Source of the DNA: Bolinopsis microptera
Lineage: Eukaryota; Ctenophora; Tentaculata; Lobata; Bolinopsidae
Direction of reading: 5' to 3'
Length of the DNA: 62,000 nucleotides
Assembly (NCBI RefSeq): GCF_026151205.1
Contig: NC_087081.1
Coordinates: 1,477,886 to 1,539,885, forward strand
Shown here piece after piece: positions 10,801 to 62,000 of this stretch (within the stretch, counting starts at the first letter, position 1; each line of letters begins with the position of its first letter). Below the pieces are notes generated by a model. The model did not search any database, was not told where the DNA came from, and worked only from the letters and a program-made list of their open reading frames with translations. Made by a program: the position numbers and the translations under genes.

Positions 10801-13800
10801 AGATTATTTAGGTATTTGGTATTTTGCTATATCACTATTTCGGTATTTCGGTATTTACTGTTCACTTTTTTTGAAATTGCACTCTTATTGCTAATTGTTA
10901 CTGTAATTGTAATATTTCCTATTTCAGCAACTACGGACGGACCATCCAACAAGCCTCTGACACTGAGTACACAGGATGAGACATTGGCCACCTCCCAACC
11001 TACCCCAACAGGTTAATTATTAATTCGATTGTTTAATTAACTACATAATTGTTTGATTTAGATAATGTTTTCCTTATCAACAAAAAATGGGCGCACGATC
11101 ATAGGTAAACTGTTGAATTAATTAAAACTTAAGATTATAAAGCTATCTGACTTGAAAATTTGATATCTAGATGAAGTCCTGAAAGTTATTTTTCTAAAAT
11201 AAGACTTGAGAGTTGTATTTATAAATTGAGACTTGAGAGGCTGCATTTATCACAAAATTGATATGTGACAACCTCGTGGAGATCAAAATTATTCGTTTGA
11301 TAAATTTCGTTTCCTCAGAAACCTTACAGATGGAAACTAAAACTACATCGGAGAAGAAAATCTTACAGAAATTTTACAAAGGTAAAAATTGTAACTTTTT
11401 TCAATCCACTTCATACTTTCATAGTTTCATTTTACTTCGAATGCTTTGTTTTTTAAATTCGCCATTCCAATATACTTGTCCATTGATAGTATCCTAACTT
11501 AATGTACAATTTCAGTAAATGTAACATGTGAAGATTACATGAGTGTCAGGATAGATTACAGTGCTGAAATAGACTACTCACCTCATTTCACTGCAGAAGG
11601 TATTTACTTAATAGACAAATTAATTTGCTTATTAAATAAATAACAGCAGTCTGTTCCTTGTATGTACGTGTTATTCCTTCATTTAGTAAAAATATGAGCT
11701 GTATTCGAAAAGCTGATGAAACATAAAGTGTAGCTAAGAATTCGTATATACACGGTGCTGTGTGGCCCATAACTATAAGTCCGCGTGTAAACGTTTGGGC
11801 TGACCTATGGGCCACCCTGTAGCAAATTAAAAGCAATTGATAACCAATCAAAGCCTCACAAAATCTCATACAACATGTCTAAAACCTGGAACTAACAGTC
11901 TCATCTCCCCAGACAAGTCATGCGAAGTGGAAGGATCTCAGGGGTCTCACACAGCTACCCTCCGACTAAAATATAATCCACCTGACTGTGGAACTAAAGT
12001 TGTGAAACCTCATGCCTCCTCCGGTGCCCAATACAGGGTCATGAGAAATAGGGTCAGTATTCTCCTCTTTTATTGGCCCGATAATTTGCTATTTTGTTTT
12101 TATCTTGCTTGTTTGGACAGTTCACTGTTTTGCTGACAGAAAAGTATAAACGAAATTGTCCGATAGTCTATCAAAGTATCAAGACATGTCTAAAACTTAG
12201 TCCATTGTTTTTCTCTCTTTGGGTCAAACCTAAAAACTGTGTCACCACCGTTATTATCTCATAGTCACACTTTGTCAATCGGGAAATGATGCAAATAATT
12301 TAGATTTTCTGTTGTTGAAATCAAAAGATTTATCAAGAAAAGCATAATTCCTTTATTACCCCTTTATTACCCATTTATTACCCCTTTATTATTTCATCAC
12401 AGATATACGTAAGAAGCTTAGCCGGAGGAGGATACGATCCTATACAAGAAATAGAATGCCCGATTCCTTTCGATAAACCACCTGCAGAACCCATCGAGAT
12501 GTCTTTTTACAGCGACAGCCATTTCACAAGACAGTTCGGATCTTTTGTTAACGAAGTGGACCATGATGTTTTATATCTTGGAAATAATAAGGTGAAATAT
12601 TGAAATATCTTTTGTTAACGAAGTGGACCATGATGTTTTATATCTTGGAAATAATAAGGTGAAATATTGAAATATCATCTGTTTTTACTCGTTTAAATTT
12701 GTATAGTATTAGGCTTAAGATTAGAAAACAGGTTAAGGAGAGGATTGAGAGACTTATTTTGCGGACAAACTGAACAATTCACGGTTATTACTCTCAATCA
12801 TTCTCAAAAATGTCCATTACGATTAAAGAATGCAAACTATCACATGCTATGCATGGTAGCCCGTAGCCATTATACATGGTATGCATCTACATTCTACTTC
12901 TCAAATTCCTCTTTACTGAATTTTAAAGACCCTGCCAGTGCTGTACAATTCTGGCTACGTTTTGTAAGAAATAATTTCTATCGTGTTATATTTCCAAACC
13001 AATACATTGTTTGAAGACCTAGCCATAATTCTTCCTGTGTATTACAATTGTAGCTTACAATTTATAAGCGAAGATGCGGTTTCTAAGGTGATATTTTCCC
13101 ATGTGATCATCTCAGACAGTCAAACTATGGAAAATTTCGAAGATCATACTAACCCTCATAATTTTCACAGACTGTTTTCGTGGAGCTGAAATCAAACGAT
13201 AGCAGCAGCTTTATATTGGAATCCTGCTTCGCAACTCCCAACGGAAAAACTGATTATCCACATCCTCACTATTTCATCAAGAATGGGTAAGAATAGTTCG
13301 TAGTAGTTGTCGATGTTTCAGGCTACGGCACAAAAATTCGTTATCACAATTTGGCATTCTTTCAGAGCCGAGAAAATACATGAATAACACCATGGTTCAA
13401 ATGAAGTATACGTATTTTACTATCTCGCAACTTAGCCAAAAAGTTTAGCTTGGAAATCTATTTTATGGCTTGTCTTTCATCACCTATCAAGTACTCAAGT
13501 CTTTCAAGTTCCGAACTTGTTCACACTTGCTTTCCTGTTGAAAGTCGGCTCACAAGTTCTACCCCAGGTGCAAAGAAGACGACAGCTTCACTGTGGCAGA
13601 CTTCATACCTGGCACTAGAGCCAGATTCAGCTTCTATCGTATTATGTTCTCTGATAACAGATTCTCCGGGCGGGTAATTCTCAGATTTTAAGTGATTTTT
13701 AAAACAGACGCTGAATTAAACTAAATTAATAAGATTTTCATTTAACTATACCTGGATATTTTCACCTCACCCTTTAGAACCGCTCTGACGTGGTTAGTAC

Positions 13801-39034: not shown

Positions 39035-39299
39035 ATGTATTATGTATTATGTATTATGTATTATGTATTATGTATTATGTATTATGTATTATGTATTATG
39101 TATTATGTATTATGTATTATGTATTATGTATTATGTATTATGTATTATGTATTATGTATTATGTATTATGTAGTATGTATTATGTATTATGTATTATGTA
39201 TTATGTATTATGTATTATGTATTATGTATTATGTATTATGTATTATGCATTATGTATTATGTATTATGTATTATGTATTATGTATTATGTATGTATTTT
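39035..39299. repeat. Heptamer satellite (ATGTATT)n, about 37 copies
   Basis: Almost perfect 7-bp tandem repeat with rare changes (TAGTATG, TGCATT). Because 7 is not a multiple of 3, all forward frames read the same MYYVLCI cycle with no stop; there is no reason to call it coding. Confidence 0.97.
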
Positions 39300-41310: not shown

Positions 41311-44300
41311 ATTTGTTTGTCCGAAAGATTGCATCGCAACCAACTTCACCGGGGATTACACAGAGGTTGGTAGTTCATTTTACAAATTTTTAGCGCTCCT
41401 TCGATGTAGGCAATGCAGTATTTTTGCAGTATTTTTAATTTTCACAGTAACTGACTCAGTACTGTCGCAGTACCTTTTTGTCACAGTTTTGTTGTCGACA
41501 TACTATCGCATGACCGATAGTTTGAGCTACAACTTCAATTATATAATAAATATAATGTTTTTACCAGTTTCGGGAGTAATAAAGTTTATTATTATCAATA
41601 ACATGTTTTTGCAGGAGAGCGCACCTTGCAGAGACGCACAAAGCTTATTCTCTGCCAATAACGCTGTTGATATGTTTAAAGATGGGAATGGGACGTATTC
41701 TCTGATATCCAGGTTAGAGCCTTTTTAGTGTTTCTTCTCCTTACTCTTTTGGTCAGAAAATCTTATAAAAATTTTCACTGAAACCCTAGGCCTAAGTAAG
41801 CCATTTCTGTGCTGCCTGAAAAGTTTTTAGGCAGCACAGAAATGGCCTAAGATGGGAAGCTAAGGGCAAATAACTACAAATGAGAAACTTAAGCATCTGG
41901 ATTCAGGACAGTATTCAATTTTTGGTATCTACTAAACAATGGTGCACTTTTCCTTGCCAATATCTCTCATTATCTTATTACTGTAATTTATATTACTCAA
42001 GTCTGAAAATATATAACACTCTCAGAGACGGGACTTGTAGGCAAGAAATTGATACCCTGGCAAGCCACCTTTGAACCTGACCATGTTTTACAATCTGAGC
42101 CCGAGTATTAATTGCCTGCTCTCTTCCCCTATTGGCTGAAACAATACCACGTGGCAGTATTTGATTAATAAGGGGTTCTTTGGAGAGTGCAGAGAGTGCA
42201 AGGACCATGTTTTGTCATCACGTGTTATCACGTGACATAGCCTTGGGTTTTTGGTAGGTCACGTGATGCTTTGTATTACAGCACGGCCCGGAGTTGCTTT
42301 ACTATTAATGTTAGGGTACAGTCAGGCTGTCTTTACTCGTTGGGTAATTAATAGGGTGCATGTGTTGGGTATTGTATTTTTCAAGAACATGATCCTACAC
42401 GCAAATTTTATCCAATTTATGATAAAAAATATGACTTATCTGGTAAAATCAACCAGATCTAACCTTTTTGACCTAGAAATAGGCTATATCTGGGGTAGAG
42501 TTCATATGACAACTCTATACATAGAAGCTATAAATTAAGAAGTGAACATGATCTGTTGATCTCTCTGAACTTACGACCGTTAACTTGTTCGGCAGTGAGT
42601 CGCATCAATGAATTCAGGAGAAATTGGATATTATTAAGTGTCTTGGAGAACTATCTGCTGTATTCGAGAGTCTTCTTGGGTCCTTTCAAGGTGACAGTCT
42701 CTCCGGCAAGCTTTTCACTCTTGTCCTAGCAGGAGCTCTTATAGAACTACGCCATCGACTAGCAGAATCTCCCCCACACATACCCAATCCCCCTATTTCA
42801 AAAGAAGGTATGCCACTGGAGTCAGCGTATTCAGATGATTGTAACTTCATGAACGTGGAAAAAGAATCCTTAGAAGCTATCCTACCAATAGCTAAGGAAG
42901 TCTTCAAGGAGTTTAACCTGTTCATTAACACAGAGAAAACAGAATTTACCCATGTTTTCCTCGCTCCTGTTGGGGAAACAATCCCTGGTCGTGATGATAC
43001 CATGTTACGTGGAAATGAAGATTGGCGGAAGAGTAAGATTCTTGGGTCATTGTTGTGTAGTGAAAGTGATATAGCTGCTCGATGCATTGCTGGGAACAAT
43101 GCCTTCTATAAGTTCACCAAGATCTGGTCTCAGCAGAATATCTCCGTTACCAGAAAGATAGCAGTATACGAAGCCCAAATTGTATCAATCATCATGTACA
43201 ATTGCAGTAGTTGGTGTCCTACTGCAAAGTCACTAGAAAAACTAGACATTTGCCATAGAAAACACCTTAGATCATTACTGAACATTTATTGGCCTCATGG
43301 AACAATATCCAATGCAAACTTATACCTAAGATGTAACTCAGTCAAGCTATCAGATCGTGTCCCTAAAGCAAGGTGGAAGCTCCTAGGTCATATCTTGCGT
43401 AGTGCTGATGACTCCCCCGCTGCATTAGCGTTAAAGTTTGCTGTCACAACAAACTGTAAAGGGCGCGTCGGTGCGCATCGTAAGAATTTGTTCAAGATTA
43501 TTGTGAATGATTTGACCCGTAGAGGTTTAAAACTTAACTCTTTGAATGATCTTAATAAGCTTAAGATATTAGCCGATGATAGAGTTGCTTGGAGAAACAA
43601 ATTTTAACTCTAGCTGTCTTGATCTGTACTGATCACCATTTTAGGATGACTTGATTTCTTTTAGGGGTTTTGAATATTTTAATGGTGTAAACAGTTTCTT
43701 AATAATAATATTAAGTGTCTTTTGTGTACACTTTCTGATTAGCACATCGGTTGTGTAATGTGTTCCTAAGAATAAAAGAAGAGCGAAATTACCGCCCATT
43801 TTGCAATCAGACGCAATACGTGCGGAAAATTGACAATTTAATTGGCGTTTCGGTCATGATTGCTACTAGTTATTGTTCGTGAAGCACATATTCAAATATT
43901 CAAAGAACTTACTATCCAACCTAACAATTTTGGCATATTTTAGGCACTTTTAAATTTTTATCACTCAATAAAGTTGGCACAATGTTAACCCACCCTAATT
44001 GTGGTGAAATTGACGGCAGCCTAATTATATTCCTTGCTTCTTACAAAATACCTAACCTAACCTGTCAAGCTACCTTATTATACAGTTGTTATATACGTTA
44101 ACCTAACTCTGCTCTGTATATTTTAGATTTACTACTGCCCACTGTCTACATATAGAGCCAGTAATAATAATAATATTACCGTCTGTCTACAGTTACTAGC
44201 AACATCCCAATTACTGTAAGTCTCATATCCTCTATTTACCTTCAGCCCTGAGATACCTAAGTAGGTACACACATGCGCATGGGTTGGTAAAGTTCTCATT

Positions 44301-47300: not shown

Positions 47301-50300
47301 ATTTTAGTATCATCGGCATACAGTGACAGTTGTGTGCCAGGTGAAGAAAGAAAATTCATACCTCAAAGAAATTCAGAGAATCATGTTTAGTCAAACTAAA
47401 TTGATTTAAACTGTCGTTTAGCTATAAAAGTATAAAGCATTTGTTTACAAATAAGCTATTAATTCCTGGATCCAAACCAACAATATGAACTGTCCGTGTC
47501 CTTTGAACGCCAAATTAAGTGTGCTCATAACTTTGACAATTAAATCTATTTATGTCACAGCTGGGTTTTGTGATCACTATTTTGCTACCACTAGGAACTA
47601 CGTTAAAACTGACTTCTTTTATAATTCATACAGCACTATATATCTATTACATTTATTGAGAACTATGTAACGTGATGGAAATATTTTAAACGGGTCATAT
47701 CCTGTCCAAACCCAGGATGCTTAACACGAAGAATTTGTTGTAACTTTGTATGAAAAGCTTTAATACGTATGTTAAATATCAGATATGCTTCAAATTACGT
47801 ACTTCAAATTACATACTGAATAAATAATATGGAATCATGATAACCCTGGAATCTGGATTTAGCTCAATGGGACCTTGATAATGGCTCCTTTGACTTCAAA
47901 AAGAAAAACGAACCTTAGCATAACGCTTCTGAGCGGTCACGAAAGAGTTCATGTTCATGTCTAACATGATAAAATAAAAAAGGAATTCTCAAAATTGCAA
48001 TATGAGAATGTGACTGCAAACTTTTTCAGTAACAAATTTTCCTAAATATTGTAACTTTTTATCCTCAGTTTGTACAGGAGACCTTAGTCTCGCTAACGAT
48101 GCCTCCATCTGTATCGTAACCTGTTCTCTGCCTGACTACGAATGTCCACGTCAGTTCAAACAGTGAGTATTTGGGTGTAAAAAAAATAGATTACGATTTC
48201 CAATACGACAACAAGATATTCGAAAATCTAGACGTCATGATTTTGAATGAATAAAGAAAAATCGAATCTATTATTCAAAGTTCGACATACACATTGCACA
48301 TATTGCACATATCGCGGTGTTCTTTCTGACAATCAATTATTTTTAATCGCACTAACTCTAGCTGTCCTGGTAATACAATACTTAAATATTTTAGACGTTG
48401 TGCCTGCCCGTGGAGTAAGCCTATACTAAAGGATATAAATAAAGGAATATGTGTGAGAAGTATACGGGATTGTCCTCCGTATAACACGTATATTCTACCT
48501 AAAAACGGTAAGTTTTTTTCTGTTATAACACGTATATTCGACCTAAAAACGGTAAGTTTTGTTCATTTTTTGGCAACATTTCATACAGTTTATTGTTTCT
48601 AAATTGCAGTATCGAATTCTAAGTAGGGATAAACCTGTCGATCAATTTAACTAAATAGTCTTTTAGCTTTTCATCGTATTAGTCCGTTCTTTAATTGCTA
48701 AAGCTAGATTCTAAGATGCAGTTATATTATTAAACTGTTCTATTCAACTGAAAACGGGGTTTAGCTATTTAGTGCTTACGGACCATTTTGATTTTTAGTC
48801 TAACGAAAATTTTGCTGAAACAGCAATTTAGCTGTATAACCCTTTAACTTTAAAGTCCACGCTTCATCTCACCTTCAGGTCTATTATAATTTAACTTTAT
48901 GAAGTCCAATCTCTAATTGCTACTGAAAACTGAAAACGGGCTTTAGCTATTTAGTGCTTACACGGACCATTTTGACTTTTAGTTGAATGAAAATTGAAAT
49001 GTCGGACAACCGTTTACGCTTCATCTCACCCTCAGGTCTATCAGAATTTAACTTTACGAAACAGCCGGAAGACTTGATCAAGAAGCGGGGAGATAAGATA
49101 AGGATGCAATGTACTGTTAACGGTAACACCAACTATCAGTATTTCTGGTACAAGTCCCAGACTCTCGTCATGGGCTCTCATTCTATCAGCGTGAGTTTTA
49201 CTTTCATTTCTGACGCGAGAGGGAGGGGAATTGGGCACTATATCATCAAATCAATGCCCAATGGTCTGGGTCATTATCAACCAATTTGGAGCACCCTAAT
49301 ACAAGGTCAACCTTTCGTATAATTCAATTATGACATTATATAACCTGGGGACCCCAGCATTTTTTTAAAAAGGCTATTATGTTCATATTCATAAACATAT
49401 AGATTCGGCTGAATGACAGGCTGAGCGCCGCCCAGTAAGATCAAGACATCATATTTATACCTTATATTGTTAACTATATTAAACTACCTCTCTTTCAGAG
49501 ATCCATAGACGGATTCCTACAACAGACGGGTAACCCCTACTACGACATCAACTCTGTACAACCATCAGATTCAGGTTAATAAAATTATCACAAAATGTTT
49601 GGTTTTTTAGCTAATGGTTTGTTTATCTGGCTCTATACTAGTTGATTTGATCAAAAACGTTTTACTAAAGCTTATTAGCAGAACATTTATGTTTAAATCG
49701 TATCATGGTGAGTCTTTTTTGGCCCACTACGGGATGATATCTCATTACTCATTACTAGTATCCGTGACAAAATAAAAAACGATCGATTTACACTTGAACC
49801 TGATCGTATATATACGATCAGGTTCAAGTGTAAATCGATTTTTTTTTCATGAATCAGTTATGCTCCGATAACTGATTCATGATATTATATATATATATAT
49901 ACATTATCATGAATCAGTTATCGGAGCAACTCGAAATGTTTGATCAATGAGAAATGAAACCACTTTTGACTTAAAGTTAGTGAATTAGGAAATAATTAAT
50001 TAATTTGTGTGACAGGATATTATCACTGTGTGGTGAGGACAGGAGATACAGTGGCGGGTATGAGGGATCCTAAATATGGATCCAGAGACGCCAAGTACTC
50101 CATTATCTCCAATATTGGATATCTAAAGGTTTGTTATTTCCGATATTGGATATCTTATGGTGTGTTATCTCCAATTGGCTCAGTGGCTTAGTTGGTTAAT
50201 CTGCTTGTCTACTGGCCCTGACGTTGCGAGTTCGAATCCCAGTTGGGCCAAGATTTCAAAATTGATGGGCAGCCGTCACTCACCAAACCATGGTGTGAAT

Positions 50301-53300
50301 GGTAGTGGCTCTCATTAGAGCTGCGAAAATAACACGAGTGCATATGCCTGGGGTTGCGTCCCGACTATGCTGCAGGGAAATCTGTACCGAAAGGACCGTG
50401 GCCGCACCGCAAAAGAAAAGGAGATCGGCCCCTCGAATCTCGATCCTAGCTTGCTAGGTTCGCCATTGTTGTTGTGTTGTTGTATCTCCAATTATATTGG
50501 ATATCTTAAGGTTTGGAACTATTAGAATGGAAATCGTATCAGTAAGGTTTTCTTATCGTGACTAATACATCTGTGATATTGGTATTTCTTTGCTGTACCT
50601 ATTAAAAAGGTTCTATGTAACCCTTATAGTTTACAAATAACACTGTAATTTCACTATAATTGACAGGTAGCATATCTGGATACACCAAATCTAGGTGACA
50701 CTGTTACCATAGTGACACAAAAAGAGACCCTAAAAACAGTGCTGCCTTGTGACCTCCCCAAGAGTGAACCTCCTGTAGAGGCTGTCTGGTAAGGCTCACC
50801 AAATACATGATTACTAATTACTTATTATAATTACTAATTATTATGAATTACTAATTAGCTTGGTTAATTCATTAGAATAAATCAATTATTTGGCACTTTA
50901 ATCAAACTAAGCTTAGGATTTGATGCCATTTGTTACAAATTTGGATAAAACTGCAATGAAACAAATTTAAATTATATCATAAAGAAACCTAGTGCATTTT
51001 ATGGTTGTCAAAGGGGCATGCAACACGTGCAACCTGTGTAGTATTGCAACCTGTGTGGTATTGAAACCTGTGTGGTATTGCTCAAACCAAACCGTAACCT
51101 AGTAAAAATTAGTGGTTTGGGGCATTAAATAGAGTGACGGCTAAATTAAAGTTTAAAATCTAGGTCTCTTTGGAAATATAAAACTACAATCTGTTTGCTG
51201 ACGTGTGCCACTTTAAGTTCATATAATAATGAATGAATAACATGACAAGCTTGTGGACAGAATTTTATTAACATTTTATGGCGATTTACAAAATATTCTC
51301 TTTGATAATTTCAAGGATAGTTTATGGACTGAAGAAAACTGCCAGATTGGTCAACAAGGGGATGTTTCTCAAATTTGTACCATTACATAACAATTAATAA
51401 GTTTATTTGCTTTTCTGAATAATTGTTCAGTTTTTGTAATTAGCTAATGAGTCATGATTCAGGTACAAGGGAGACAAAGTCGTTAACGATAAACGAATGT
51501 TCGTCGTACCTCAGGCTCAAAAAGCTGGTTTGGAATTTTAATTCCTTAATTTTATTTCAAGATGAGAATCATTCGTGTTTAATCCTAATTGTTTCGATTT
51601 TAGTTATCGACTTTAATTTTCTACCTCCCAAAACAAGATTGATGTCAGAATGGCCTACTTATATTCCGGCGCACGCCGCGCACGCCTGAAATTTGTTCTA
51701 ATATTAATCACCAGTTAAAGCAACAACTAGCAGGTACTCAATAGTCACTCAATAGTCACTCAATAGTCACATAATAGTCACTCAATAAAGCAACAAGATT
51801 AAATCCTTAGGTGACAAAGCGAAGCGGGGCTCCCTCTACATCATCATGGCAGAAACGGGAGATGCTGGTGTATACACCTGTAAAGCAACATACGGAGGCG
51901 AGACTTTCGAGGTCGCTAAAGTAAACCTCGAAGTAACGGTGGGTTTTATAGTCAATAATATTGTCTAAAAATGGTATGATTTTAGCTATTTAAAGTATTT
52001 TTAAAGTATTAAATAGTCCATTAAACTTCAAGTTCTGAGGGACGAATAACTCACGGTTATCAAGGTAGTGGTATTTATCAAATAGCGAGAATAAAGTCCT
52101 AGTAGTAGTAGTAATAATAAGTATGATAATGTTCGAATATACTGGATTGATTCAAGTGGTAAACACCTCCTCTACAGGGAATGATAGGACAGCCGATCAG
52201 TGACCCGGAGATAGTGGTCCAGGTAGCAGGTCGAGCTCGGGTCACCACTAACCACACCACTAACCACACCTCTAACCACACCACTTACCACACCACTAAC
52301 CACACCTCCTCTACAGGGAATGATTGGACAGCCGATCAGTGACCCGGAGATAGTGGTCCAGGTAGCAGGTCGAGCTCGGGTCACCACTAACCACACTACT
52401 AACCACACCACTAACCACACCTCCTCTACAGGGAATGATTGGACAGCCGATCAGTGACCCGGAGATAGTTGTCCAGGTAGCAGGTCGAGCTCGGGTCACC
52501 ACTAACCACACCACTAAGTTCTAACCACACCTTCTCTACAGGGAATGATAGGACAGCCGATCAGTGACCTGGAGATAGTTGTCCAGGTAGCAGGTCGAGC
52601 TCGGGTCACCACTAACCACACTACCACTAACCACACCTCCTCTACAGGGAATGATAGGACAGCCGATCAGTGACCCGGAGATAGTGGTCCAGGTAGCAGG
52701 TCGAGCTCGGGTCACCACTAACCACACCACTAACCACACCACTAAGTACTAACCACACCTCCTCTACAGGGAATGATTGGACAGCCGATCAGTGACCCGG
52801 AGATAGTTGTCCAGGTAGCAGGTCGAGCTCGGGTCACCACTAACCACACCACTAACCACACCACTAACCACACCACTTACCACACCACTAACCACACCTC
52901 CTCTACAGGGAATGATTGGACAGCCGATCAGTGACCCGGAGATAGTTGTCCAGGTAGCAGGTCGAGCTCGGGTCACCACTAACCACACCACTAACCACAC
53001 CACTAACCACACCACTTACCACACCACTAACCACACCTCCTCTACAGGGAATGATTGGACAGCCGATCAGTGACCCGGAGATAGTGGTCCAGGTAGCAGG
53101 TCGAGCTCGGGTCACCACTAACCACACTACTAACCACACCACTAACCACACCTCCTCTACAGGGAATGATAGGACAGCCGATCAGTGACCCGGAGATAGT
53201 GGTCCAGGTAGCAGGTCGAGCTCGGGTCACCACTAACCACACTACTAACCACACCACTAACCACACCTCCTCTACAGGGAATGATAGGACAGCCGATCAG

Positions 53301-56300
53301 TGACCCGGAGATAGTGGTCCAGGTAGCAGGTCGAGCTCGGGTCACCACTAACCACACTACTAACCACACCACTAACCACACCTCCTCTACAGGGAATGAT
53401 AGGACAGCCGATCAGTGACCCGGAGATAGTTGTCCAGGTAGCAGGTCGAGCTCGGGTCACCACTAACCACACCACTAACCACACCACTAACCACACCTCC
53501 TCTACAGGGAATGATAGGACAGCCGATCAGTGACCTGGAGATAGTTGTCCAGGTAGCAGGTCGAGCTCGGGTCACCACTAACCACACCACTAACCACACC
53601 ACTAACCACACCTCCTCTACAGGGAATGATAGGACAGCCGATCAGTGACCCGGAGATAGTTGTCCAGGTAGCAGGTCGAGCTCGGGTCACCACTCACCAC
53701 TAACCACACCACTAACCACCACTACCACCTCCTCTACAGGGAATGATAGGACAGCCGATCAGTGACCTGGAGATAGTTGTCCAGGTAGCAGGTCGAGCTC
53801 GGGTCACCACTAACCACACCACTTACCACACCACTAACCACACCTCCTCTACAGGGAATGATAGGACAGCCGATCAGTGACCCGGAGATAGTTGTCCAGG
53901 TAGCAGGTCGAGCTCGGGTCACCACTAACCACACCACTAACCACACCATTAACCACACCTCCTCTACAGGGAATGATAGGACAGCCGATCAGTGACCCTG
54001 GAGATAGTGGTCCAGGTAGCAGGTCGAGCTCGGGTCACCACTAACCACACCACTACACACACTAACCACACCTCCTCTACAGGGAATGATAGGACAGCCG
54101 ATCAGTGACCCGGAGATAGTTGTCCAGGTAGCAGGTCGAGCTCGGGTCACCACTAACCACACCACTAACCACACCTCCTCTACAGGGAATGATAGGACAG
54201 CCGATCAGTGACCCGGAGATAGTTGTCCAGGTAGCAGGTCGAGCTCGGGTCACCACTAACCACACCACTAACCACACCACTAAGTACTAACCACACCTCC
54301 TCTACAGGGAATGATAGGACAGCCGATCAGTGACCCGTAGATAGTTGTCCAGGTAGCAGGTCGAGCTCGGGTCACCACTAACCACACCACTAACCACACC
54401 TCCTCTACAGGGAATGATAGGACAGCCGATCAGTGACCCGGAGATAGTGGTCCAGGTAGCAGGTCGAGCTCGGGTCACCACTAACCACACCACTAACCAC
54501 ACCACTAACCACACCTTCTCTACAGGGAATGATAGGACAGCCGATCAGTGACCCGTAGATAGTTGTCCAGGTAGCAGGTCGAGCTCGGGTCACCACTAAC
54601 CACACCACTAACCACACCTCCTCTACAGGGAATGATAGGACAGCCGATCAGTGACCCGGAGATAGTGGTCCAGGTAGCAGGTCGAGCTCGGGTCACCACT
54701 AACCACACCACTAACCACACCACTAACCACACCTTCTCTACAGGGAATGATAGGACAGCCGATCAGTGACCCGGAGATAGTGGTCCAGGTAGCAGGTCGA
54801 GCTCGGGTCGGACAGACAGCAACTTTCTTCTGTGCAGGAGTCGGTAACCCTGTACCTACTGTCTCCTGGAGCAAGGAGGACGGTGAGTTCTGAGTTCTGA
54901 GTTCTGAGTTCTGAGTTCTGAGTTCTGAGTTCTGAGTTCTGAGTTCAGTCAAGGTTGCAGTTTCATGGTTGCAACCGGGTTAAATGGCATGCTGGTTTTG
55001 AGCAAGTTTAAATTAAACTTGCTCAAAACCAGCATACCTTTTAAACCAACCCAATTAAACTTTAATTGGGTTAACCTACAATATATTTAAGGGCCGGTTA
55101 AAACTACTTCTTTAAATGTAATGAATTACAGGCACGAGAATTGTTGAAAGTGATACGGTGGGGCTGTCAAACTTTAACAGAAAGCTCACCATCGCAAACG
55201 TTCGGCCAGAGATGACACGAGATTTCGCTTGCACTGTTCGGTAACGGCTTGAAATTTGTTATAAAACTGCTTTAACCTGAGTCCTGACTAGTTTTACTCT
55301 TGGCGTTAATGAAACTATTAAAGCTGATATATAATCCTCTCCAGATCAGAGAACAGCATGAACTCAAGGAAGACCATCCTTTACCTTTCTATCATGCCCT
55401 CGTCCTACCAGATCAACTTCCAGGAGACCCCCTCCTCCCAGATCATAAGACCTAATGTGTACACCAACTTTACCATGCGGTGTGCCATAACCGTGGACCC
55501 TGTTATGTAAGTGTCACGCTGTAGCCTGTATCACGCTGCTGACATGTGTCTAGGTTACCCTTTTTTTGGGACAGTACCTTCTGTATGCAATACGTGCACG
55601 TTTGAAATACATGTTTTGAACAGAATGTGGGCACGTTATGAATGTTATCATGGTTCTAATGTTTTCCATTTTTTTTCAATTTTCTGTATGTCAGTCTGTA
55701 TGACTATAATACATAAGCAATCAATAGGCACGTATACAATGTGGTATAGCAATCCATGATATGTAATAATAGGATGGTGCGGATTTTATGGCCTGATGAA
55801 AAATAACGATAGATTATATTAATATTATATAGTTCGGAGTTTCGCTGCTATCTGGTCAGGACCAAACCACCAAACTAGTCAACCACTCGAAGGACCTAAT
55901 ACTAACTGCCACATATTTCCAAATATCCCCCACTTTTTCTTTAGACGATTTTTATGCTGATCGAAACTTTTGTACGCGCACCGGTTTAGAAAATATAAAA
56001 ACCTTTGTTATTTAAATTTACAATTTTTTTAAATGTTTAAATTGAAAACCTCGGGAATGTTCGGCTATTGTTTATATCATTCAGATGTTCGCGATTAGTA
56101 CAGTCTCATATTAAGGTCAATCGACGCTCAACTTACTTTATGAAGAGAAATGAGAAACTTAAAAGCAAAATTCAAGCACAAATCAATTCTTTAATTACAG
56201 TTCAATGAACCACCAGTACCAACGTCTTACTGATGAACGACATAAATTTGCCTTATAAGCTCTCAAAATTTAATTTGCCTTATGAGCTTTCAAAACTCGA

Positions 56301-59300
56301 ATAAATACTATTTAGTTGAGTCCTAGCTTTAGTAACTGTATTTCGGCTCTAAAATCATTATTCCTCGGCCAATTTTTTATTTTTTCATGCTGATTTGGAG
56401 GATATTAAAGCATTTGACCCTGCCAAAAAAGTTTCAGTTGTATATCTTTTACGGTTTTTGCAGAAAGTTGCGTTAAAGTCGATGCCGTGGTGTCAGTAAA
56501 ATGGCACAGATATATATATATCGTCTCGCTTTATATATAGTAAGATTCTGTAAAACATTTTTTCGTCGGCTGTGTACTAGTAACGCAGTTGGTAAAAACG
56601 CCAGTTTAAGCCAACCTGTGTTTAGAGGTTGCGAGTTCAATCCCCGTCAGGGGCAGTTCTCAACATATAACCAAAAATGGTAATCTTTTTTTGCTCTTAT
56701 GAGTGGGTCAATCATTTATTTTGAATTGTAGTTGACGAAGTGAGAGTCTCCACTCAGTGTGTTAAAACATAATTCTTTGTCGACAAAGAATTATGTTTTT
56801 CGTCAACTACAATTCAAAATATATAACCAAAAAGGAACGACCGATCACCAAACCATGGTATTGGTGTTGCTTAGCACAAAATGGTACACGGACTAGGCCT
56901 TGGAAAAATTAATTGTTGGTAGTTGTGATGGGCTCCTCGTGCAGAAATGCATGAATATCTTCCTCCTTGCTAACACTTGCGTGAGCACTGAGCTTGGAGA
57001 AGCATCATGAGCGGGCGTTGCCAGGTAACTGGCTATCCCGTGAATGGAAGCTTGTGTAAAAAAAAGGGGGGAAAAGTAGAATATACTAAATATCTGTAAA
57101 CATTTTGTTTTGCAATTTGCATGACACAATGCATGACATTTAATACAATATTCTGTCCACCTGCAATCCTGCATGTCTTTTTTGCATGTCTTTTTTGCAT
57201 GTCTGTTGCATGATTACATGTTGCATGATTCACTAACCCTGACTCCTAAGTCTCTACCACAGTGAAGCGCCGGTTATGTACTGGATCAAGAACGGAGCCT
57301 CGCTGGACATGAAGCCTCCCAGCAGAATAAGAACTGAAACTACAGGTAAGTGCGCAGAATAAGAACTGAAACTACAGGTAAGTGCGCATAATAAGAACTG
57401 AAACTACAGGTAAGTGCGCAGAATAAGAACTGAAACTACAGGTAAGAGTGAAGAATAAGAACTGAAACTACAGGTAAGTGCGCATAATAAGAACTGAAAC
57501 TACAGGTAAGTGCGCAGAATAAGAACTGAAACTACAGGTAAGTGCGCAGAATAAGAACTGAAACTACAGGTAAGAGTGAAGAATAAGAACTGAAACTACA
57601 GGTAAGTGCGCATAATAAGAACTGAAACTACAGGTAAGAGTGAAGAATAAGAACTGAAACTACAGGTAAGTGCGCATAATAAGAACTGAAACTACAGGTA
57701 AGAGTGAAGAATAAGAACTGAAACTACAGGTAAGTGCGCATAATAAGAACTGAAACTACAGGTAAGTGCGCAGAATAAGAACTGAAACTACAGGTAAGAG
57801 TGAAGAATAAGAACTGAAACTACAGGTAAGTGCGCATAATAAGAACTGAAACTACAGGTAAGAGTGAAGAATAAGAACTGAAACTACAGGTAAGTGCGCA
57901 TAATAAGAACTGAAACTACAGGTAAGAGTGAAGAATAAGAACTGAAACTACAGGTAAGTGCGCATAATAAGAACTGAAACTACAGGTAAGTGCGCAGAAT
58001 AAGAACTGAAACTACAGGTAAGAGTGAAGAATAAGAACTGAAACTACAGGTAAGTGCGCATAATAAGAACTGAAACTACAGGTAAGAGTGAAGAATAAGA
58101 ACTGAAACTACAGGTAAGTGCGCAGAATAAGAACTGAAACTACAGGTAAGTGCGCAGAATAAGAACTGAAACTACAGGTAAGTGCGCATAATAAGAACTG
58201 AAACTACAGGTAAGTGCGCAGAATAAGAACTGAAACTACAGGTAAGTGCGCAGAATAAGAACTGAAACTACAGGTAAGTGCGCAGAATAAGAACTGAAAC
58301 TACAGGTAAGTGCGCATAATAAGAACTGAAACTACAGGTAAGTGCGCAGAATAAGAACTGAAACTATAGGTAACTGCGCAGAATAAGAACTGAAACTACA
58401 GGTAAGAGTGAAGAATAAGAACTGAAACTACAGGTAAGTGCGCATAATAAGAACTGAAACTACAGGTAAGAGTGAAGAATAAGAACTGAAACTACAGGTA
58501 AGTGCGCAGAATAAGAACTGAAACTACAGGTAAGTGCGCAGAATAAGAACTGAAACTACAGGTAAGAGTGAAGAATAAGAACTGAAACTACAGGTAAGTG
58601 CGCATAATAAGAACTGAAACTACAGGTAAGAGTGAAGAATAAGAACTGAAACTACAGGTAAGTGCGCAGAATAAGAACTGAAACTACAGGTAAGTGCGCA
58701 GAATAAGAACTGAAACTACAGGTAAGAGTGAAGAATAAGAACTGAAACTACAGGTAAGTGCGCAGAATAAGAACTGAAACTACAGGTAAGAGTGAAGAAT
58801 AAGAACTGAAACTACAGGTAAGTGCGCATAATAAGAACTGAAACTACAGGTAAGTGCGCAGAATAAGAACTGAAACTACAGGTAAGTGCGCATAATAAGA
58901 ACTGAAACTACAGGTAAGTGCGCAGAATAAGAACTGAAACTACAGGTAAGTGCGCATAATAAGAACTGAAACTACAGGTAAGTGCGCAGAATAAGAACTG
59001 AAACTACAGGTAAGAGTGAAGAATAAGAACTGAAACTATAGGTAACTGCGCATAATAAGAACTGAAACTACAGGTAAGTGCGCAGAATAAGAACTGAAAC
59101 TACAGGTAAGTGCGCAGAATAAGAACTGAAACTACAGGTAAGTGCGCAGAATAAGAATTGAAACTATGAGTATGAGTTAAGTGTGCAGGAGAAAGGAAAT
59201 ATATTATCAAAGCTGGCAGTAGGTAATGACTAATGATACAGATAATGAAAGTTCTAATTAGTAATAAGATAGTTTTGTCGCTGTAAGACAGTTTCATTCA

Positions 59301-60905
59301 TTATAAAGTTTTAAGTTTCATCCATTCCTCTCAATTCACCAGTCCAATCTTTGTCCTATTTTCCTATTTTAATTGTCAGTAATCAACGTTTTGTGGTTAC
59401 TCTTATAATGACAGTTGTCTAGATATCTTAATGTTAATCTGTATCTTGTTGCAGAAAGAAGTGTGTAACTAGGTGGTAACTAGGTGGTAACTAGGTGGTA
59501 ACTAGGTGGTAACTAGGTGGTAACTAGGTGGTAACTAGGTGGTAACTAGGTGGTAACTATGTGGTAACTAGGTGGTAACTAGGTGGTAACTAGGTGGTAA
59601 CTAGGTGGTAACTAGGTGGTAACTAAATGTTAATCTGTATCTTGTTGCAGAAAGAAGTGTGGGTAAAGTGGTAACTAGGTGGTAACTAGGTGGTAACTAG
59701 GTGGTAACTAGGTGGTAACTAGGTGGTAACTAGGTGGTAACTAAATGTTAATCTGTATCTTGTTGCAGAAAGAAGTGTGGGTAAAGTGTGTAACTAGGTG
59801 GTAACTAGGTGGTAACTAGGTGGTAACTAGGTGGTAACTAGGTGGTAACTAGGTGGTAACTAGGTGGTAACTAGGTGGTAACTAGGTGGTAACTAGGTGG
59901 TATCTAAATGTTAATCTGTATCTTGTTGCAGAAAGAAGTGTGGGTAAAGTGACCATCAGAACGAGTAAACTAATCTTCGACACCCCAAATGAAAGTGACA
60001 AAGGTTAGTTTTCAGTTGCCTTATTAGTTACTTTAATGTTTTAAAATCCGTGGACGCTGGAGGCCCTAGTGTTCATAGGTATGTCTGTTCAATTTAATTC
60101 TGTCCGTCCAAATAAAAATCCGTTCAAATTCAAGTATCCCATTGCAAACTTATTATCCAGGATATGACTACTTTTTAATTTCGGACAATTTCAATTTCAT
60201 CCGGACTAAATTATATAATATTGATTAATTTTCTTTCTAACTTCCTAATTCTTCTTCCGTTTTTCCACATCACCGTTTATTTATCTTTTATTCAAGTGTA
60301 CACTGTACGTGTATGATAACTACTAAATGTTTACTTTAGTGCTGAATAAGAGCGATGCTCTGTTCTCTTTCACTCATTGTTTACTACTTACAGATACAGT
60401 CTGTTTCTAATTTATTACTTTCGTTTTTGTTACTTTCTTCACATATTTCAGCTGTAGTTATGCAAGGCTTCAACAAGTCTGAAAGTCATATAAACATAGG
60501 CTACATGATAGGATTCACTGTACAGTGTACCGTCTAGGTTGCCACAATACATATTTTGTAATTAATCATTTCATATTCCCATATTATTCAATCCAACAGA
60601 CTTCAGATTTATATCATAGTAACATGTGCCCGTACTCAGATTTGTCGTGTTGAGACTTGGCGATCAATATCACTGGTATTTACACATTCTTCTCAGCGTA
60701 CTTACGTTGCAGCAACTCAGAGTCAGACGCAATTAGTTCTGGCAACTCTATGGTTATACATTTTTTCCTTTTTTCCTGCGTGTGCCAGATATATTTCTTG
60801 TATGACGTATTCTTCTACAGTCCACAGAACATTGTCATGGCCCTTATTCTCACTTCAAAGGAAGAGGTAAAACAAATACTAATTGGTTTTCACTTTTCTC
60901 TATGA
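41311..60905 (+). CDS. Immunoglobulin-superfamily protein with Cys-rich N-terminus (5' end not found)
   Basis: Exons: 41311-41365, 41615-41712, 44751-44791, 48069-48162, 48395-48507, 49036-49190, 49499-49574, 50016-50128, 50667-50788, 51463-51527, 51811-51938, 54744-54882, 55132-55240, 55345-55506, 57263-57345, 59932-60003, 60697-60905. All use GT-AG and every phase agrees across sixteen junctions. The product, about 610 residues as seen, has a Cys-rich region, then four Ig domains. The first visible exon starts mid-codon, so at least one upstream exon with the signal peptide is missing. The last exon supplies the F-strand Cys of Ig4 and a hydrophobic stretch, possibly membrane-spanning; a donor-like GAG|GTAAAA at 60866 leaves open further exons. 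Introns carry a LINE RT copy, a SINE and splice-junction minisatellites. Partner and pathway are unknown; adhesion or recognition is likely for the family. Confidence 0.8.
41800..41846. repeat. Perfect 18-bp inverted repeat
   Basis: The arms GCCATTTCTGTGCTGCCT (41800-41817) and its complement (41829-41846) are separated by 11 nt; partial complementarity continues outward. It lies in an intron of the Ig gene. Confidence 0.9.
42600..43790 (+). mobile_element. 5'-truncated LINE with open RT C-terminus (intron of Ig gene)
   Basis: The open frame at 42624-43607 (327 codons) includes GDSLSGKLFTLVLAGAL, the catalytic pair in AYSDDCNF, then a thumb and C-terminal region (SIIMYNCSSWCP, RWKLLGHILRS). 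It is from a different lineage than the 8171 and 46391 copies. The frame is unbroken but lacks the first half of the RT and the endonuclease. The 3' end is near an AATAAAA at about 43772. Confidence 0.8.
43791..46380. other. Intron sequence of the Ig gene
   Basis: Apart from exon 44751-44791 nothing coding is supported. A sense-strand open frame at 44519-44722 has no recognisable feature. Confidence 0.4.
46391..47362 (-). mobile_element. 5'-truncated LINE RT (CR1/jockey-like), antisense in the Ig gene intron
   Basis: The open frame (322 codons) begins at the catalytic YADDTKIWREI and runs to the FYFRTHSKWNHIPL motif and stop. It is homologous to 8171-9211 but diverged, and the 5' truncation falls just before the YADD box. 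There are no internal stops. Confidence 0.85.
48470..48560 (+). repeat. 44-bp tandem duplication spanning a 5' splice site
   Basis: TATAACACGTATATTC, then ACCTAAAAACG|GTAAGTTTT, occurs twice. Donors are at 48508 (in-frame model) and 48552. The second would shift the frame. Confidence 0.92.
48748..49060 (+). repeat. Duplicated 3' splice site with start of Ig1 exon
   Basis: Blocks at about 48748-48903 and 48927-49060 share GGTTTAGCTATTTAGTGCTT, the pyrimidine tract GCTTCATCTCACC and TTCAG or CTCAG, then the first 25 nt of the exon. The upstream copy reads a stop in the frame of the real exon (CTA TTA TAA), so it is a decoy acceptor at 48878. Confidence 0.85.
49036..50128 (+). other. Ig domain 1 (3 exons)
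   Basis: RMQCTVNGN (B-strand Cys), QYFWYKS (Trp), then PSDSGYYHCVVR (F-strand Cys in the D-x-G-x-Y-x-C signature). Confidence 0.85.
49782..49926. repeat. Cluster of nested palindromes
   Basis: A loopless perfect palindrome of 2 x 29 bp centred at 49810/49811 is followed by a 14-bp-arm hairpin (49848-49881). The right arm of that hairpin also pairs with 49905-49926 through an AT-repeat spacer (22 bp). The cluster is intronic in Ig domain 1. Confidence 0.93.
50104..50515 (+). repeat. Triplicated exon end and 5' splice site, interrupted by a SINE
   Basis: ATCTCCAATATTGGATATCT followed by a G|GTTT-like donor occurs at 50104-50132. A diverged copy is at 50135-50166. A third copy is split by the SINE and completed at 50484-50515 (ATATCTTAAG|GTTTGG). 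Confidence 0.85.
50177..50483 (+). mobile_element. tRNA-derived SINE with 10-bp target duplication
   Basis: A box TGGCTTAGTTGG, B box AGTTCGAATCC, an unrelated body of about 230 bp and a GTT-rich 3' tail. The flanks ATCTCCAATT at 50167-50176 and 50484-50493 are a perfect target-site duplication. Sense orientation in an intron of the Ig gene. Confidence 0.9.
50667..51938 (+). other. Ig domain 2 (3 exons)
   Basis: TVLPCDLPKS (B-strand Cys), AVWYKGDK (Trp codon split by the intron), GSLYIIMAETGDAGVYTCKA (F strand), ending EVAKVNLEVT. It is a clean I-set-like domain. Confidence 0.88.
51733..51788 (+). repeat. 12-bp repeat just upstream of a 3' splice site
   Basis: Four to five copies of ACTCAATAGTC(A) end about 20 nt before the acceptor at 51810, where the branch point would be expected. 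Confidence 0.85.
52165..54743 (+). repeat. Minisatellite of 3' splice site plus Ig exon start: 22 decoys
   Basis: Units of about 103-139 bp each contain CTCCTCTACAG|GGAATGATAGG and then 66 nt identical or nearly so to the start of the real exon at 54744. The unit then leaves the exon at CGGGTC and continues into 1-4 copies of a 12-mer (ACTAACCACACC). Decoy acceptors begin at 52178, 52317 and so on to 54526 and 54629; the real one is 54744. Every unit keeps the AG, the pyrimidine tract and a CAG|GTAGCA donor-like site 45 nt downstream. Units 19 and 21 have an in-frame TAG (CCGTAG), unit 16 a one-base insertion. Long minus-strand frames here are repeat artefacts. Confidence 0.95.
54884..54946 (+). 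repeat. 7-bp minisatellite (TGAGTTC x9) seeded on a 5' splice site
   Basis: The donor GACG|GTGAGT at 54883 forms the first unit; nine perfect heptamers follow without a break. Confidence 0.95.
54989..55035. repeat. Perfect 22-bp inverted repeat plus adjacent 10-bp one
   Basis: ATGCTGGTTTTGAGCAAGTT begins the left arm; the right arm ends at 55035 with a 3-nt loop. A second hairpin (CCCAATTAAA/TTTAATTGGG) follows at 55050-55070. Confidence 0.92.
56577..56680 (+). mobile_element. tRNA-like SINE head
   Basis: A-box-like TAACGCAGTTGG and B-box-like GAGTTCAATCC occur with tRNA spacing. No convincing acceptor stem. A SINE fragment is more likely than a tRNA gene. Confidence 0.45.
56718..56820. repeat. 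Bulged long palindrome
   Basis: Inner palindrome AAAACATAATTCTTTG with its complement around TCGA (56764-56799). Outer arms at about 56718-56738 and 56801-56820 pair perfectly, with about 26 nt extra in the left arm. Confidence 0.88.
57346..59169 (+). repeat. 57-copy, 32-bp minisatellite of a 5' splice site
   Basis: The exon 57263-57345 ends AAGAACTGAAACTACAG|GTAAGT. The last 17 nt of exon plus 15 nt of intron are then repeated 57 times in exact 32-bp register, with no insertion or deletion. Three unit types: GTAAGTGCGCAGAAT (24), GTAAGTGCGCATAAT (17) and GTAAGAGTGAAGAAT (16). Two units (at about 58370 and 59042) carry TATAG|GTAACT instead. Almost every unit therefore has CAG|GTAAGT or CAG|GTAAGA. 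It lies wholly within one intron of the Ig gene. Confidence 0.97.
59430..59931 (+). repeat. Composite array: 11-mer repeats and three decoy 3' splice sites
   Basis: The segment ATGTTAATCTGTATCTTGTT, then GCAG|AAAGAAGTGTG, occurs at 59430, 59627, 59744 and finally at the real acceptor (59931). Between copies lie blocks of the 11-mer TAACTAGGTGG (about 14, 6 and 11 copies). Decoy exon starts are 59455, 59651 and 59769; the real one is 59932. Confidence 0.95.
60452..60537 (+). other. Possible alternative terminal exon of the Ig gene
   Basis: After acceptor ATATTTCAG, in phase with the exon ending at 60003, it encodes VVMQGFNKSESHINIGYM then IGFTVQCTV and a stop. It resembles the A-B strands of Ig4 (TNFTMRCAITV). 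Its use would truncate the protein before the F strand and the hydrophobic end. It could also be a dead exon copy. Confidence 0.35.
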
Positions 60906-61411
60906 TGATATTAGGCTACTAAATTTTAAGTTGAGTACTAAAAGCAAAGATATCTAATATATCATGACTTTCTCAAGAAGTAGGACATAGATCAAAGAGC
61001 ATGGGCAATGGCACTGGGACTACCAAATTAATTGTTTCATTTCTTAGCTTCCTTTGGCAGTCACAGGCTGCTATTACAGTATTACTTTTAACCAGTAATC
61101 TCATTTGACTAATTCGTGTAATGTGGGCTCTTTTGAGAGATTTCTTGATTAATACTTTATCAGTTACCGATTTAGAGAATTAATGGTTGAGATCACTGAT
61201 AATTATGGCCTGACAGTTTTCTCGTTAGACGGTAGACACGCTAGGAGCTCTGGACGAATTTTTGACCGTAAGATTGATTAAAAGTGGTCAGGTAATGATT
61301 GACTGATCTGGGAATCTCTAAAAAACCGCCATTCCAAATCGAAGCACTATAATCAATTAAATAATTGTTAATAAATTAGCAATCTCCTGAACCTTCCTCT
61401 CGTCCAGAATA
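60906..61411. other. Intergenic, Ig gene to GPCR
   Basis: An AATAAA at 61370-61375 could end the Ig transcript. Otherwise nothing is recognised. The GPCR start follows about 40 bp later. Confidence 0.4.
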
Positions 61412-62000
61412 ATGACACACCAGGACAACATGACATCAGGACTACATGAACACCGTAGTGAACGTTACATCTGGATCCTCTTCAACACCATCGTCCTCCT
61501 TTCCTCCCTGATCGGAGACACCGTCATCCTGTACGGGACCATCAGACACAACGCTATCACCCTGCACAGAGTTGTAGTGGTCCTCATCCAGCACCTCGCA
61601 GTATGTGATATATTCCTAGCTGTCTTCAGAGTCTTCCCCACCATTGTGTCTCTCATCACGGACAGATGGGTCTTTGGGACGTCTCTCTGCTACCTCAATG
61701 ACCATGTACATTGGTTGTGTAACCCCCTGGTGATGGCCCTGACATGTGCTCTCTCCATTGCTAAGTTCCTGTCTGTAAAGTTCCCGTTCCGAGCTGACAC
61801 CTGGACCAGGAAACAAGCTCACATTGCATGTTTCGTCCTCTGGGGAGTCTGTCTTATCTCACCTTCTCAGCTGATCCGTGCAGTCTACAGTAAACAAAAC
61901 TCAATGCATTTCTGCTACATTGACTACTCCTGCAGCTATAACATGTCCATCAATAACACTAATGCTCCCACATGGCTGTACTACTCTACTTCTACTTTCT
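61412..62000 (+). CDS. Rhodopsin-like GPCR, N-terminal part (runs off the window)
   Basis: An open frame of 196 codons from ATG at 61412 (in-frame TGA upstream at 61388) to the window end, without stops. Hydrophobic segments correspond to TM1 (ILFNTIVLLSSLIGDTVIL), TM2 (QHLAVCDIFLAVFRVF, with the conserved LAxxD), TM3 after a Trp and Cys (RWVFGTSLC) and TM4 (HIACFVLWGVCLIS). The DRY site is AKF in LSIAKFLSVKFPFRA, so both the acid and the Arg are missing. CYIDYSCSYNMSINNT looks like extracellular loop 2 with a Cys and N-glycosylation sites. The TM1 Asn is replaced by Asp (GD). A start downstream of a splice site is not excluded. Ligand unknown. Confidence 0.85.
   Translation, partial: MTHQDNMTSGLHEHRSERYIWILFNTIVLLSSLIGDTVILYGTIRHNAITLHRVVVVLIQHLAVCDIFLAVFRVFPTIVSLITDRWVFGTSLCYLNDHVHWLCNPLVMALTCALSIAKFLSVKFPFRADTWTRKQAHIACFVLWGVCLISPSQLIRAVYSKQNSMHFCYIDYSCSYNMSINNTNAPTWLYYSTSTF

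What the first reader, a model, noticed from the sequence alone, without database searches (positions are those of the whole stretch)
57346..59169. A 5' splice site amplified into a 57-copy 32-bp minisatellite
Seen directly: the end of an Ig exon plus its donor is tandemly repeated 57 times in perfect register. About 40 copies carry the full CAG|GTAAGT consensus, which complements U1 snRNA at every position; most others have GTAAGA. A pre-mRNA from this intron would carry nearly sixty strong U1 sites. Possible consequences are donor redundancy, length-variable alternative exon ends, U1 recruitment that protects from premature polyadenylation, or local U1 titration. I know of no standard feature class that describes this.
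Basis: partly seen in the sequence, partly recalled or inferred. Interest (0 to 1): 0.95.

Follow-up and report, generated by a model that had tools for sequence, protein, structure and literature searches.

The report
Splice-junction minisatellite in an Ig gene
The end of one exon and its splice signal are repeated 57 times in the following intron; this is a known but little-studied kind of repeat ("mirage", described in lancelets) that recurs in other genes of this animal and probably leaves the message intact because only the first copy gives a readable protein.

Summary
The array at 57322-59166 holds 57 donors spaced exactly 32 bp: 39 CAG|GTAAGT, 16 CAG|GTAAGA, 2 TAG|GTAACT. Six of the genome's ten U1 matches were read and all six fit the donor.

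It is not alone. The same gene has its exon-2 acceptor in 23 copies, its exon-6 acceptor in 4, and two small donor-spanning duplications. Of 5,244 acceptor/donor/acceptor combinations only one keeps the frame: last acceptor, first donor, last acceptor.

Genome-wide, triples of perfect donors are over-represented (CAGGTAAGT 444 overlapping matches against 0 reversed), although by distinct arrays the excess is modest. By eye 11 of 16 such array loci lie at exon ends, including homeobox and ADAM genes.

This is the class called "mirages" in lancelets, so "no standard class" is wrong. The donor motif is no better conserved than the rest of the unit (20/513 against 49/1311). The best account is a self-masking, neutral minisatellite that grew by block duplication. 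Use of the first donor is inferred; no RNA was seen. The apparent genome-wide scale, probably outside lancelets, is the new part.

The parts
57263..57345 (+). Exon 5 of an Ig-domain gene; its last 24 bases are the exon part of the repeat unit
57322..59166 (+). Donor mirage: 57 copies of a 32-bp unit (24 exon-derived + 8 intron-derived bases)
57346..57351 (+). First donor, the only one of 57 that keeps the frame
59465..59906 (+). 11-bp array (GTAACTAGGTG) between the duplicated exon-6 acceptors
59429..59951 (+). Acceptor mirage: 4 copies of the exon-6 acceptor (first exon bases 59455, 59651, 59769, 59932; outer limits approximate)
59932..60003 (+). Exon 6
52163..54809 (+). Acceptor mirage: 23 copies (103-139 bp apart) of pyrimidine tract, CTACAG and exon-2 start, with branch-point-like CTAAC upstream in 22 of 23
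54744..54882 (+). Exon 2 (the frame needs the last acceptor)
54884..54946 (+). 7-bp array (TGAGTTC x9) starting at the exon-2 donor GTGAGTTC
50103..50175 (+). 31-bp x2.4 duplication spanning an Ig exon end and its donor (AAG|GTTTGT)
48480..48564 (+). 44-bp x1.9 duplication spanning an exon end and donor (ACG|GTAAGT); the exon is an open frame read by eye, without a Pfam match
51811..51938 (+). Exon 1 of the modelled stretch (end of a V-set domain)
55132..55240 (+). Exon 3
55345..55506 (+). Exon 4

Best explanation
The array is a 'mirage': a minisatellite born by tandem duplication of a segment that spans an exon-intron junction (shown by anatomy). Duplicates on the intron side are harmless because the junction copy next to the exon still works, so the array is removed with the intron (inferred). 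Splicing joins exon 5 at the first donor to exon 6 at the last acceptor (inferred; that it is the only open combination is shown). The array grew further by duplication of multi-unit blocks, as other minisatellites do (repeated blocks shown; mechanism inferred). The other 56 donors have no selected role (inferred); U1 may still bind them.
For: The unit begins 24 bases inside the exon and ends 8 bases into the intron. One of 5,244 splice-site combinations is open: last acceptor, first donor, last acceptor. Donor-motif sites vary as much as other sites: 20 minor copies in 513 cells against 49 in 1311; 3 of 9 motif sites and 3 of 23 other sites vary. An 11-unit block repeats (0 of 2000 shuffles). 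The four TRF arrays with units of 30 bp or more in 48396-60004, plus the composite exon-6 acceptor array to which I assigned a 118-bp unit, all span an exon edge; random placement does this with frequency 3e-5, or 8.5e-5 if exon interiors are forbidden. Same anatomy elsewhere: of 16 array loci in the rows listed by eye have an open coding frame at the junction. Pfam matches run across the array for a homeodomain (L052, 1-57 of 57, above cut-off), an SH3 domain (L054, above cut-off), and, below their cut-offs, disintegrin (L040), Img2 (L039) and spectrin (L058). Near-identical loci on one contig differ in copy number, 28 vs 3 and 37 vs 26. Published mirages are said not to interfere with splicing (passages).
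Against: No RNA evidence was available. CAGGTAAGTGC is the strongest donor of this gene by U1 duplex energy, so downstream copies could compete; PMC3087553 itself says the copies could act as cryptic sites. The conservation test has little power in a homogenised array. 5 of 16 motif-picked arrays show no clear exon edge. Shorter arrays in the same stretch (50822, 51028, 51736, 57170) do not span a modelled edge. Some edges used were recognised while looking at the arrays.
Confidence: 0.75

Rival explanations
1. The array is a functional decoy or rheostat: many strong U1 sites in the intron recruit U1 snRNP, protect against premature polyadenylation, or divert splicing to nonproductive, stop-containing forms.
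For: 55 of 57 donors are CAG|GTAAG, with duplex energies of -13.2 or -11.0 kcal/mol against the genome's own U1 end. All other combinations give stops, as a poison-splicing switch would need. The same gene has arrays at several junctions.
Against: Donor motif not better conserved than the rest of the unit. Near-identical loci keep their exon frame with 3 or 28 copies. Arrays occur in unrelated genes, one of them a probable mitochondrial ribosomal protein (Img2, 32.4 bits, just under the cut-off).
Confidence: 0.12
2. Alternative donors make length-variable exon 5 isoforms that encode protein variants.
For: Every unit has a usable-looking donor.
Against: 1 of 228 donor/acceptor pairs is open; all extensions share the first extra unit, which holds an in-frame stop.
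Confidence: 0.02
3. The array or its copy number is an assembly artefact.
For: Single assembly; homogeneous tandem repeats are prone to collapse or expansion.
Against: Variant units are interleaved in a structured order, the contig is 18.3 Mb, and the same anatomy recurs at other loci.
Confidence: 0.06
4. The unit is a dispersed satellite or transposon repeat that happens to contain a donor.
For: Some motif-picked arrays come in near-identical pairs (L042/L043, L044/L045), and two non-donor arrays (L055, L056) share a 16-bp unit.
Against: The exact 26-mer of this unit is found only here, and its first copy is coding sequence of the exon. The pairs share exon and flank, not only the repeat.
Confidence: 0.03

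Closest known systems
Amphioxus 'mirages' (Adh3, globins BflGb6/BflGb9, TnC, PGBD5)
   Same: Minisatellite-like tandem duplications that span 5' or 3' exon-intron boundaries, many with AG/GT signals, with length instability (passages of PMC3087553, and PMC3902484).
   Different: Here 57 copies at one donor and 23 at one acceptor of one gene; the globin case read has 6 or 3 units of 150-160 bp. Adh3 units are 10-72 bp, but I did not see their copy number. Host genome is 264.65 Mb, smaller than any lancelet genome I recall, so probably not a lancelet; phylum not established. Splicing not tested here.
Human internal tandem repeats at exon-intron boundaries (PMC2812944)
   Same: Minisatellites at exon-intron boundaries, average unit 30 bp (passages).
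   Different: Those average 4 units, lie in segmental duplications, and are reported to form novel introns or alternative splicing patterns.
Intronic TERT VNTR (38-bp unit; PMC11830802)
   Same: Similar unit size and copy number (24-66.5 repeats) in an intron (abstract in search listing).
   Different: [quoted passage not shown] not described there as made of splice sites.
Intron gain by duplication of AG/GT proto-splice sites (Rogers model)
   Same: Tandem copies bring AG|GT into register so that a copy could be removed as an intron (described in PMC3087553).
   Different: Here the array lies inside an existing intron; no new intron is shown.

Membership tests
Mirage (splice-junction minisatellite) | Tandem repeat unit spans an exon-intron boundary | tested here: met
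   24 exon + 8 intron bases per unit
Mirage (splice-junction minisatellite) | Both 5' and 3' boundaries can be affected | tested here: met
   Donor array at exon 5; acceptor arrays at exons 2 and 6
Mirage (splice-junction minisatellite) | Repeat units carry AG/GT splice signals | tested here: met
   57 of 57 AG|GT, 55 with CAG|GTAAG
Mirage (splice-junction minisatellite) | Normal mRNA splicing is not disturbed | not testable with these tools
   No RNA data; that only one combination is open fits
Mirage (splice-junction minisatellite) | Copy-number instability | tested here: inconclusive
   Not testable for this locus; near-identical loci elsewhere differ 28 vs 3 and 37 vs 26
Mirage (splice-junction minisatellite) | Host is a cephalochordate (the cases are) | tested here: inconclusive
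   Genome 264.65 Mb; let-7 not found, but the tool says this does not show absence; no COX1 in the assembly; mir-124 search did not complete
Selected U1-recruiting or decoy array | Donor motif conserved above the rest of the unit | tested here: not met
   20/513 vs 49/1311 minor copies
Recursive (ratcheting) splice sites | Pyrimidine tract directly before AG|GTAAGT (definition recalled) | tested here: not met
   Unit reads AATAAGAACTGAAACTACAG|GTAAGT, A-rich (by eye). Another array, L050, does have TTATTTCAG|GTAAGT

The most novel reading that the evidence does not exclude
In this animal, probably outside the lancelets, tandem-duplication mutation is aimed at exon-intron junctions (not merely tolerated there). 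Mirages would then be a genome-wide class that lengthens introns, supplies a large stock of spare U1 and acceptor sites, and is a standing source of new introns and poison-splicing switches.
Probability: 0.3. Interest if true: 0.8.

Novelty: new member of a known kind. Interest (0 to 1): 0.55.

Why it matters
It is a natural test of splice-site choice: 57 near-identical, near-perfect donors and 23 acceptors in one gene, where only one pairing is productive. It would show how strongly exon definition or first-come recognition beats sheer number of sites. If mirages are genome-wide outside lancelets, they are also a ready system for watching intron growth and intron gain.

Tried and rejected
Considered and rejected: alternative in-frame exon ends; recursive splicing at this array (no pyrimidine tract); dispersed satellite (unit found only at this locus).

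Weaker than hoped: acceptor-motif arrays. TTTGCAG triples are enriched (452+321 matches against 19+46 for the reversed pattern), but of the 10 arrays in the rows listed, all read, only L072 is clearly an acceptor array. By number of distinct arrays the donor excess is modest: on contig C1, 5 arrays for AGGTAAGT (two of them one near-identical pair) against 6 for three non-donor octamers together (rows). The large match counts are inflated because one array gives many overlapping matches. Arrays picked by a non-donor motif (9 in the rows listed, read; the output was cut, so L059 was judged from the part shown): 2 of 9 (L054, L058) begin at a donor, 2 (L059, L060) lie in coding-like frames, 5 (L055, L056, L057, L061, L062) show nothing evident.

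Phylum: COX1 not found; let-7 not found, weak; mir-124 did not complete. CAGGTGAGT triples did not complete. Literature searches. The 2002 Adh paper cited as the source of the term is not held, so I rely on passages of two later papers.

Full report
Observation. The array is real. TRF reports it at 57322-59166. I count 57 donor-like sites, 56 spacings of exactly 32 bp, 39 CAGGTAAGT, 16 CAGGTAAGA and 2 TAGGTAACT. The first copy is the last 24 bases of exon 5 plus the first 8 bases of the intron. An exact 26-mer of the unit was found only at this locus in the genome (38 matches).

Gene. Six exons (51811-51938, 54744-54882, 55132-55240, 55345-55506, 57263-57345, 59932-60003) read through in one frame, and the product has Ig domains (best PF13927, E 1.2e-17). 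Exons further upstream, joined by eye, also give an Ig domain. The model uses the last of 23 exon-2 acceptors, the first of 57 exon-5 donors and the last of 4 exon-6 acceptors. Of the 23 x 57 x 4 = 5,244 combinations only that one is open.

More arrays at junctions. In the exon-2 acceptor array (TRF period 115), 20 of 23 acceptors have CTAAC with its branch-point A 17 nt before the exon, and 22 of 23 have a CTAAC within 45 nt. From first to last acceptor it makes up 2566 of the 2805 bases of its intron. In the exon 5-6 intron the donor array and the acceptor array make up 1821 and 503 of 2586 bases. The exon-2 donor is followed at once by a 7-bp array. Two small duplications, 44 bp x1.9 at 48480 and 31 bp x2.4 at 50103, span an exon end and its donor; the first of these exons has no Pfam match. 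Between 48396 and 60004 all four TRF arrays with units of 30 bp or more, and the composite exon-6 acceptor array for which I set a unit of 118 bp (its copies are 196, 118 and 163 bp apart), span an exon edge. Random placement does this with frequency 3e-5, or 8.5e-5 if units inside exons are forbidden. Some of the 18 edges were recognised while looking at the arrays, so the figure is optimistic. Shorter-unit arrays at 50822, 51028, 51736 and 57170 do not span a modelled edge.

U1. Ten U1 matches exist in the genome; the six that I read all begin ATACTTACCTG. Against that end the main donor scores -13.2 kcal/mol, the GTAAGA type -11.0, the TAG|GTAACT type -6.4, and the gene's other five modelled donors -5.2 to -9.4.

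Selection on the copies. Minor variants occupy 20 of 513 motif cells and 49 of 1311 other cells, so the donor motif is not better kept than the rest. Unit variants are arranged in repeated blocks, the longest 11 units, not reached in 2000 shuffles. This points to growth by block duplication.

Genome-wide. Patterns of three donors with short gaps: AGGTAAGT 450+762 matches against 11+0 for the reversed pattern; CAGGTAAGT 149+295 against 0+0; AAGGTAAGT 212+248 against 0+0. Three non-donor octamers together give 183+188, reversed 167+116. These are overlapping matches, not arrays; distinct arrays on contig C1 number 5 for AGGTAAGT against 6 for the three octamers, so the excess in number of arrays is modest. 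The rows listed hold 16 array loci including this one (the lists are cut; the whole genome holds more). By eye, 11 of 16 have an open coding frame at the junction: L039, L040, L042, L043, L044, L045, L046, L048, L052, the window, and L050 as an acceptor array whose exon was read from the DNA. L041, L047, L049, L051 and L053 do not clearly. L042/L043 and L044/L045 are near-identical pairs, and there the exon is on the strand opposite to the motif. Pfam: with the 21-donor array left out, the L052 homeodomain is complete (1-57 of 57, 81.3 bits). Disintegrin (L040) and Img2 (L039) also run across their arrays but score just under their cut-offs; the WD40 hits of L048 are weak and cover the upstream exon only. 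L046 and the L042 peptide had no Pfam match. Of the non-donor controls, L054 (SH3, above cut-off) and L058 (spectrin, below) run across theirs.

Instability. L044 and L045, on the same contig, share a stretch 97.4% identical over 2419 aligned bases but hold 28 and 3 copies; L042 and L043 hold 37 and 26.

What it is. [quoted passage not shown] they are reported at Adh3, globin, TnC and PGBD5 genes and are said not to disturb splicing, and Adh3 shows somatic instability (passages). The window array meets the testable anatomical features. Whether the host is a lancelet is not settled: its 264.65 Mb is smaller than the lancelet genomes I recall (recall, not a call).

How it works. Shown: anatomy, reading frames, U1 match, unit structure, copy-number differences between near-identical loci. 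Inferred: that the spliceosome uses the first donor and last acceptors, that exon definition explains this, and that growth is by slippage or unequal exchange. I put 0.75 on the neutral, self-masking account and 0.12 on a selected U1 or decoy role.

Novelty. The kind is known. Several arrays in one gene and the apparent genome-wide frequency go beyond the passages that I saw; I did not see copy numbers for Adh3. My searches cover only open-licence PMC papers and mostly gave listings; in them I saw no report under the name mirage outside amphioxus, though human repeats at exon-intron boundaries are described.

Noticed in passing
12540-12683: 67-bp x2.1 duplication in another gene on the + strand that spans the end of an open frame and a donor-like AAG|GTGAAA, another likely mirage; the frame's peptide had no Pfam match.
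   Followed up: partly
50177-50483: A SINE-like insert inside the 31-bp donor mirage, flanked by ATCTCCAATT on both sides; no tRNA called by ARAGORN.
   Followed up: partly
L050, array near 2824-3120: 9 copies of CAG|GTAAGT, most with TTATTTCAG before them, a joined 3' and 5' splice site as in recursive splicing, before an exon-like frame starting GTGCTACCG.
   Followed up: no
L044 and L045: Near-identical loci with 28 and 3 copies of a 19-bp donor repeat: a natural comparison for effects of copy number.
   Followed up: partly
G000 C2:21866316-21873721 and C3:9771139-9774988: Multi-kilobase stretches with tandem AAG|GTAAGT repeats, seen as match rows only.
   Followed up: no
42612-43604: Unbroken ORF with a weak reverse transcriptase match (RVT_1, 28.9 bits, just under the cut-off of 29.6).
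   Followed up: no
61391-61999: Rhodopsin-family receptor (7tm_1) reading frame reaching the end of the window.
   Followed up: no
39035-39292: 7-bp (ATGTATT) array of 37 copies.
   Followed up: no
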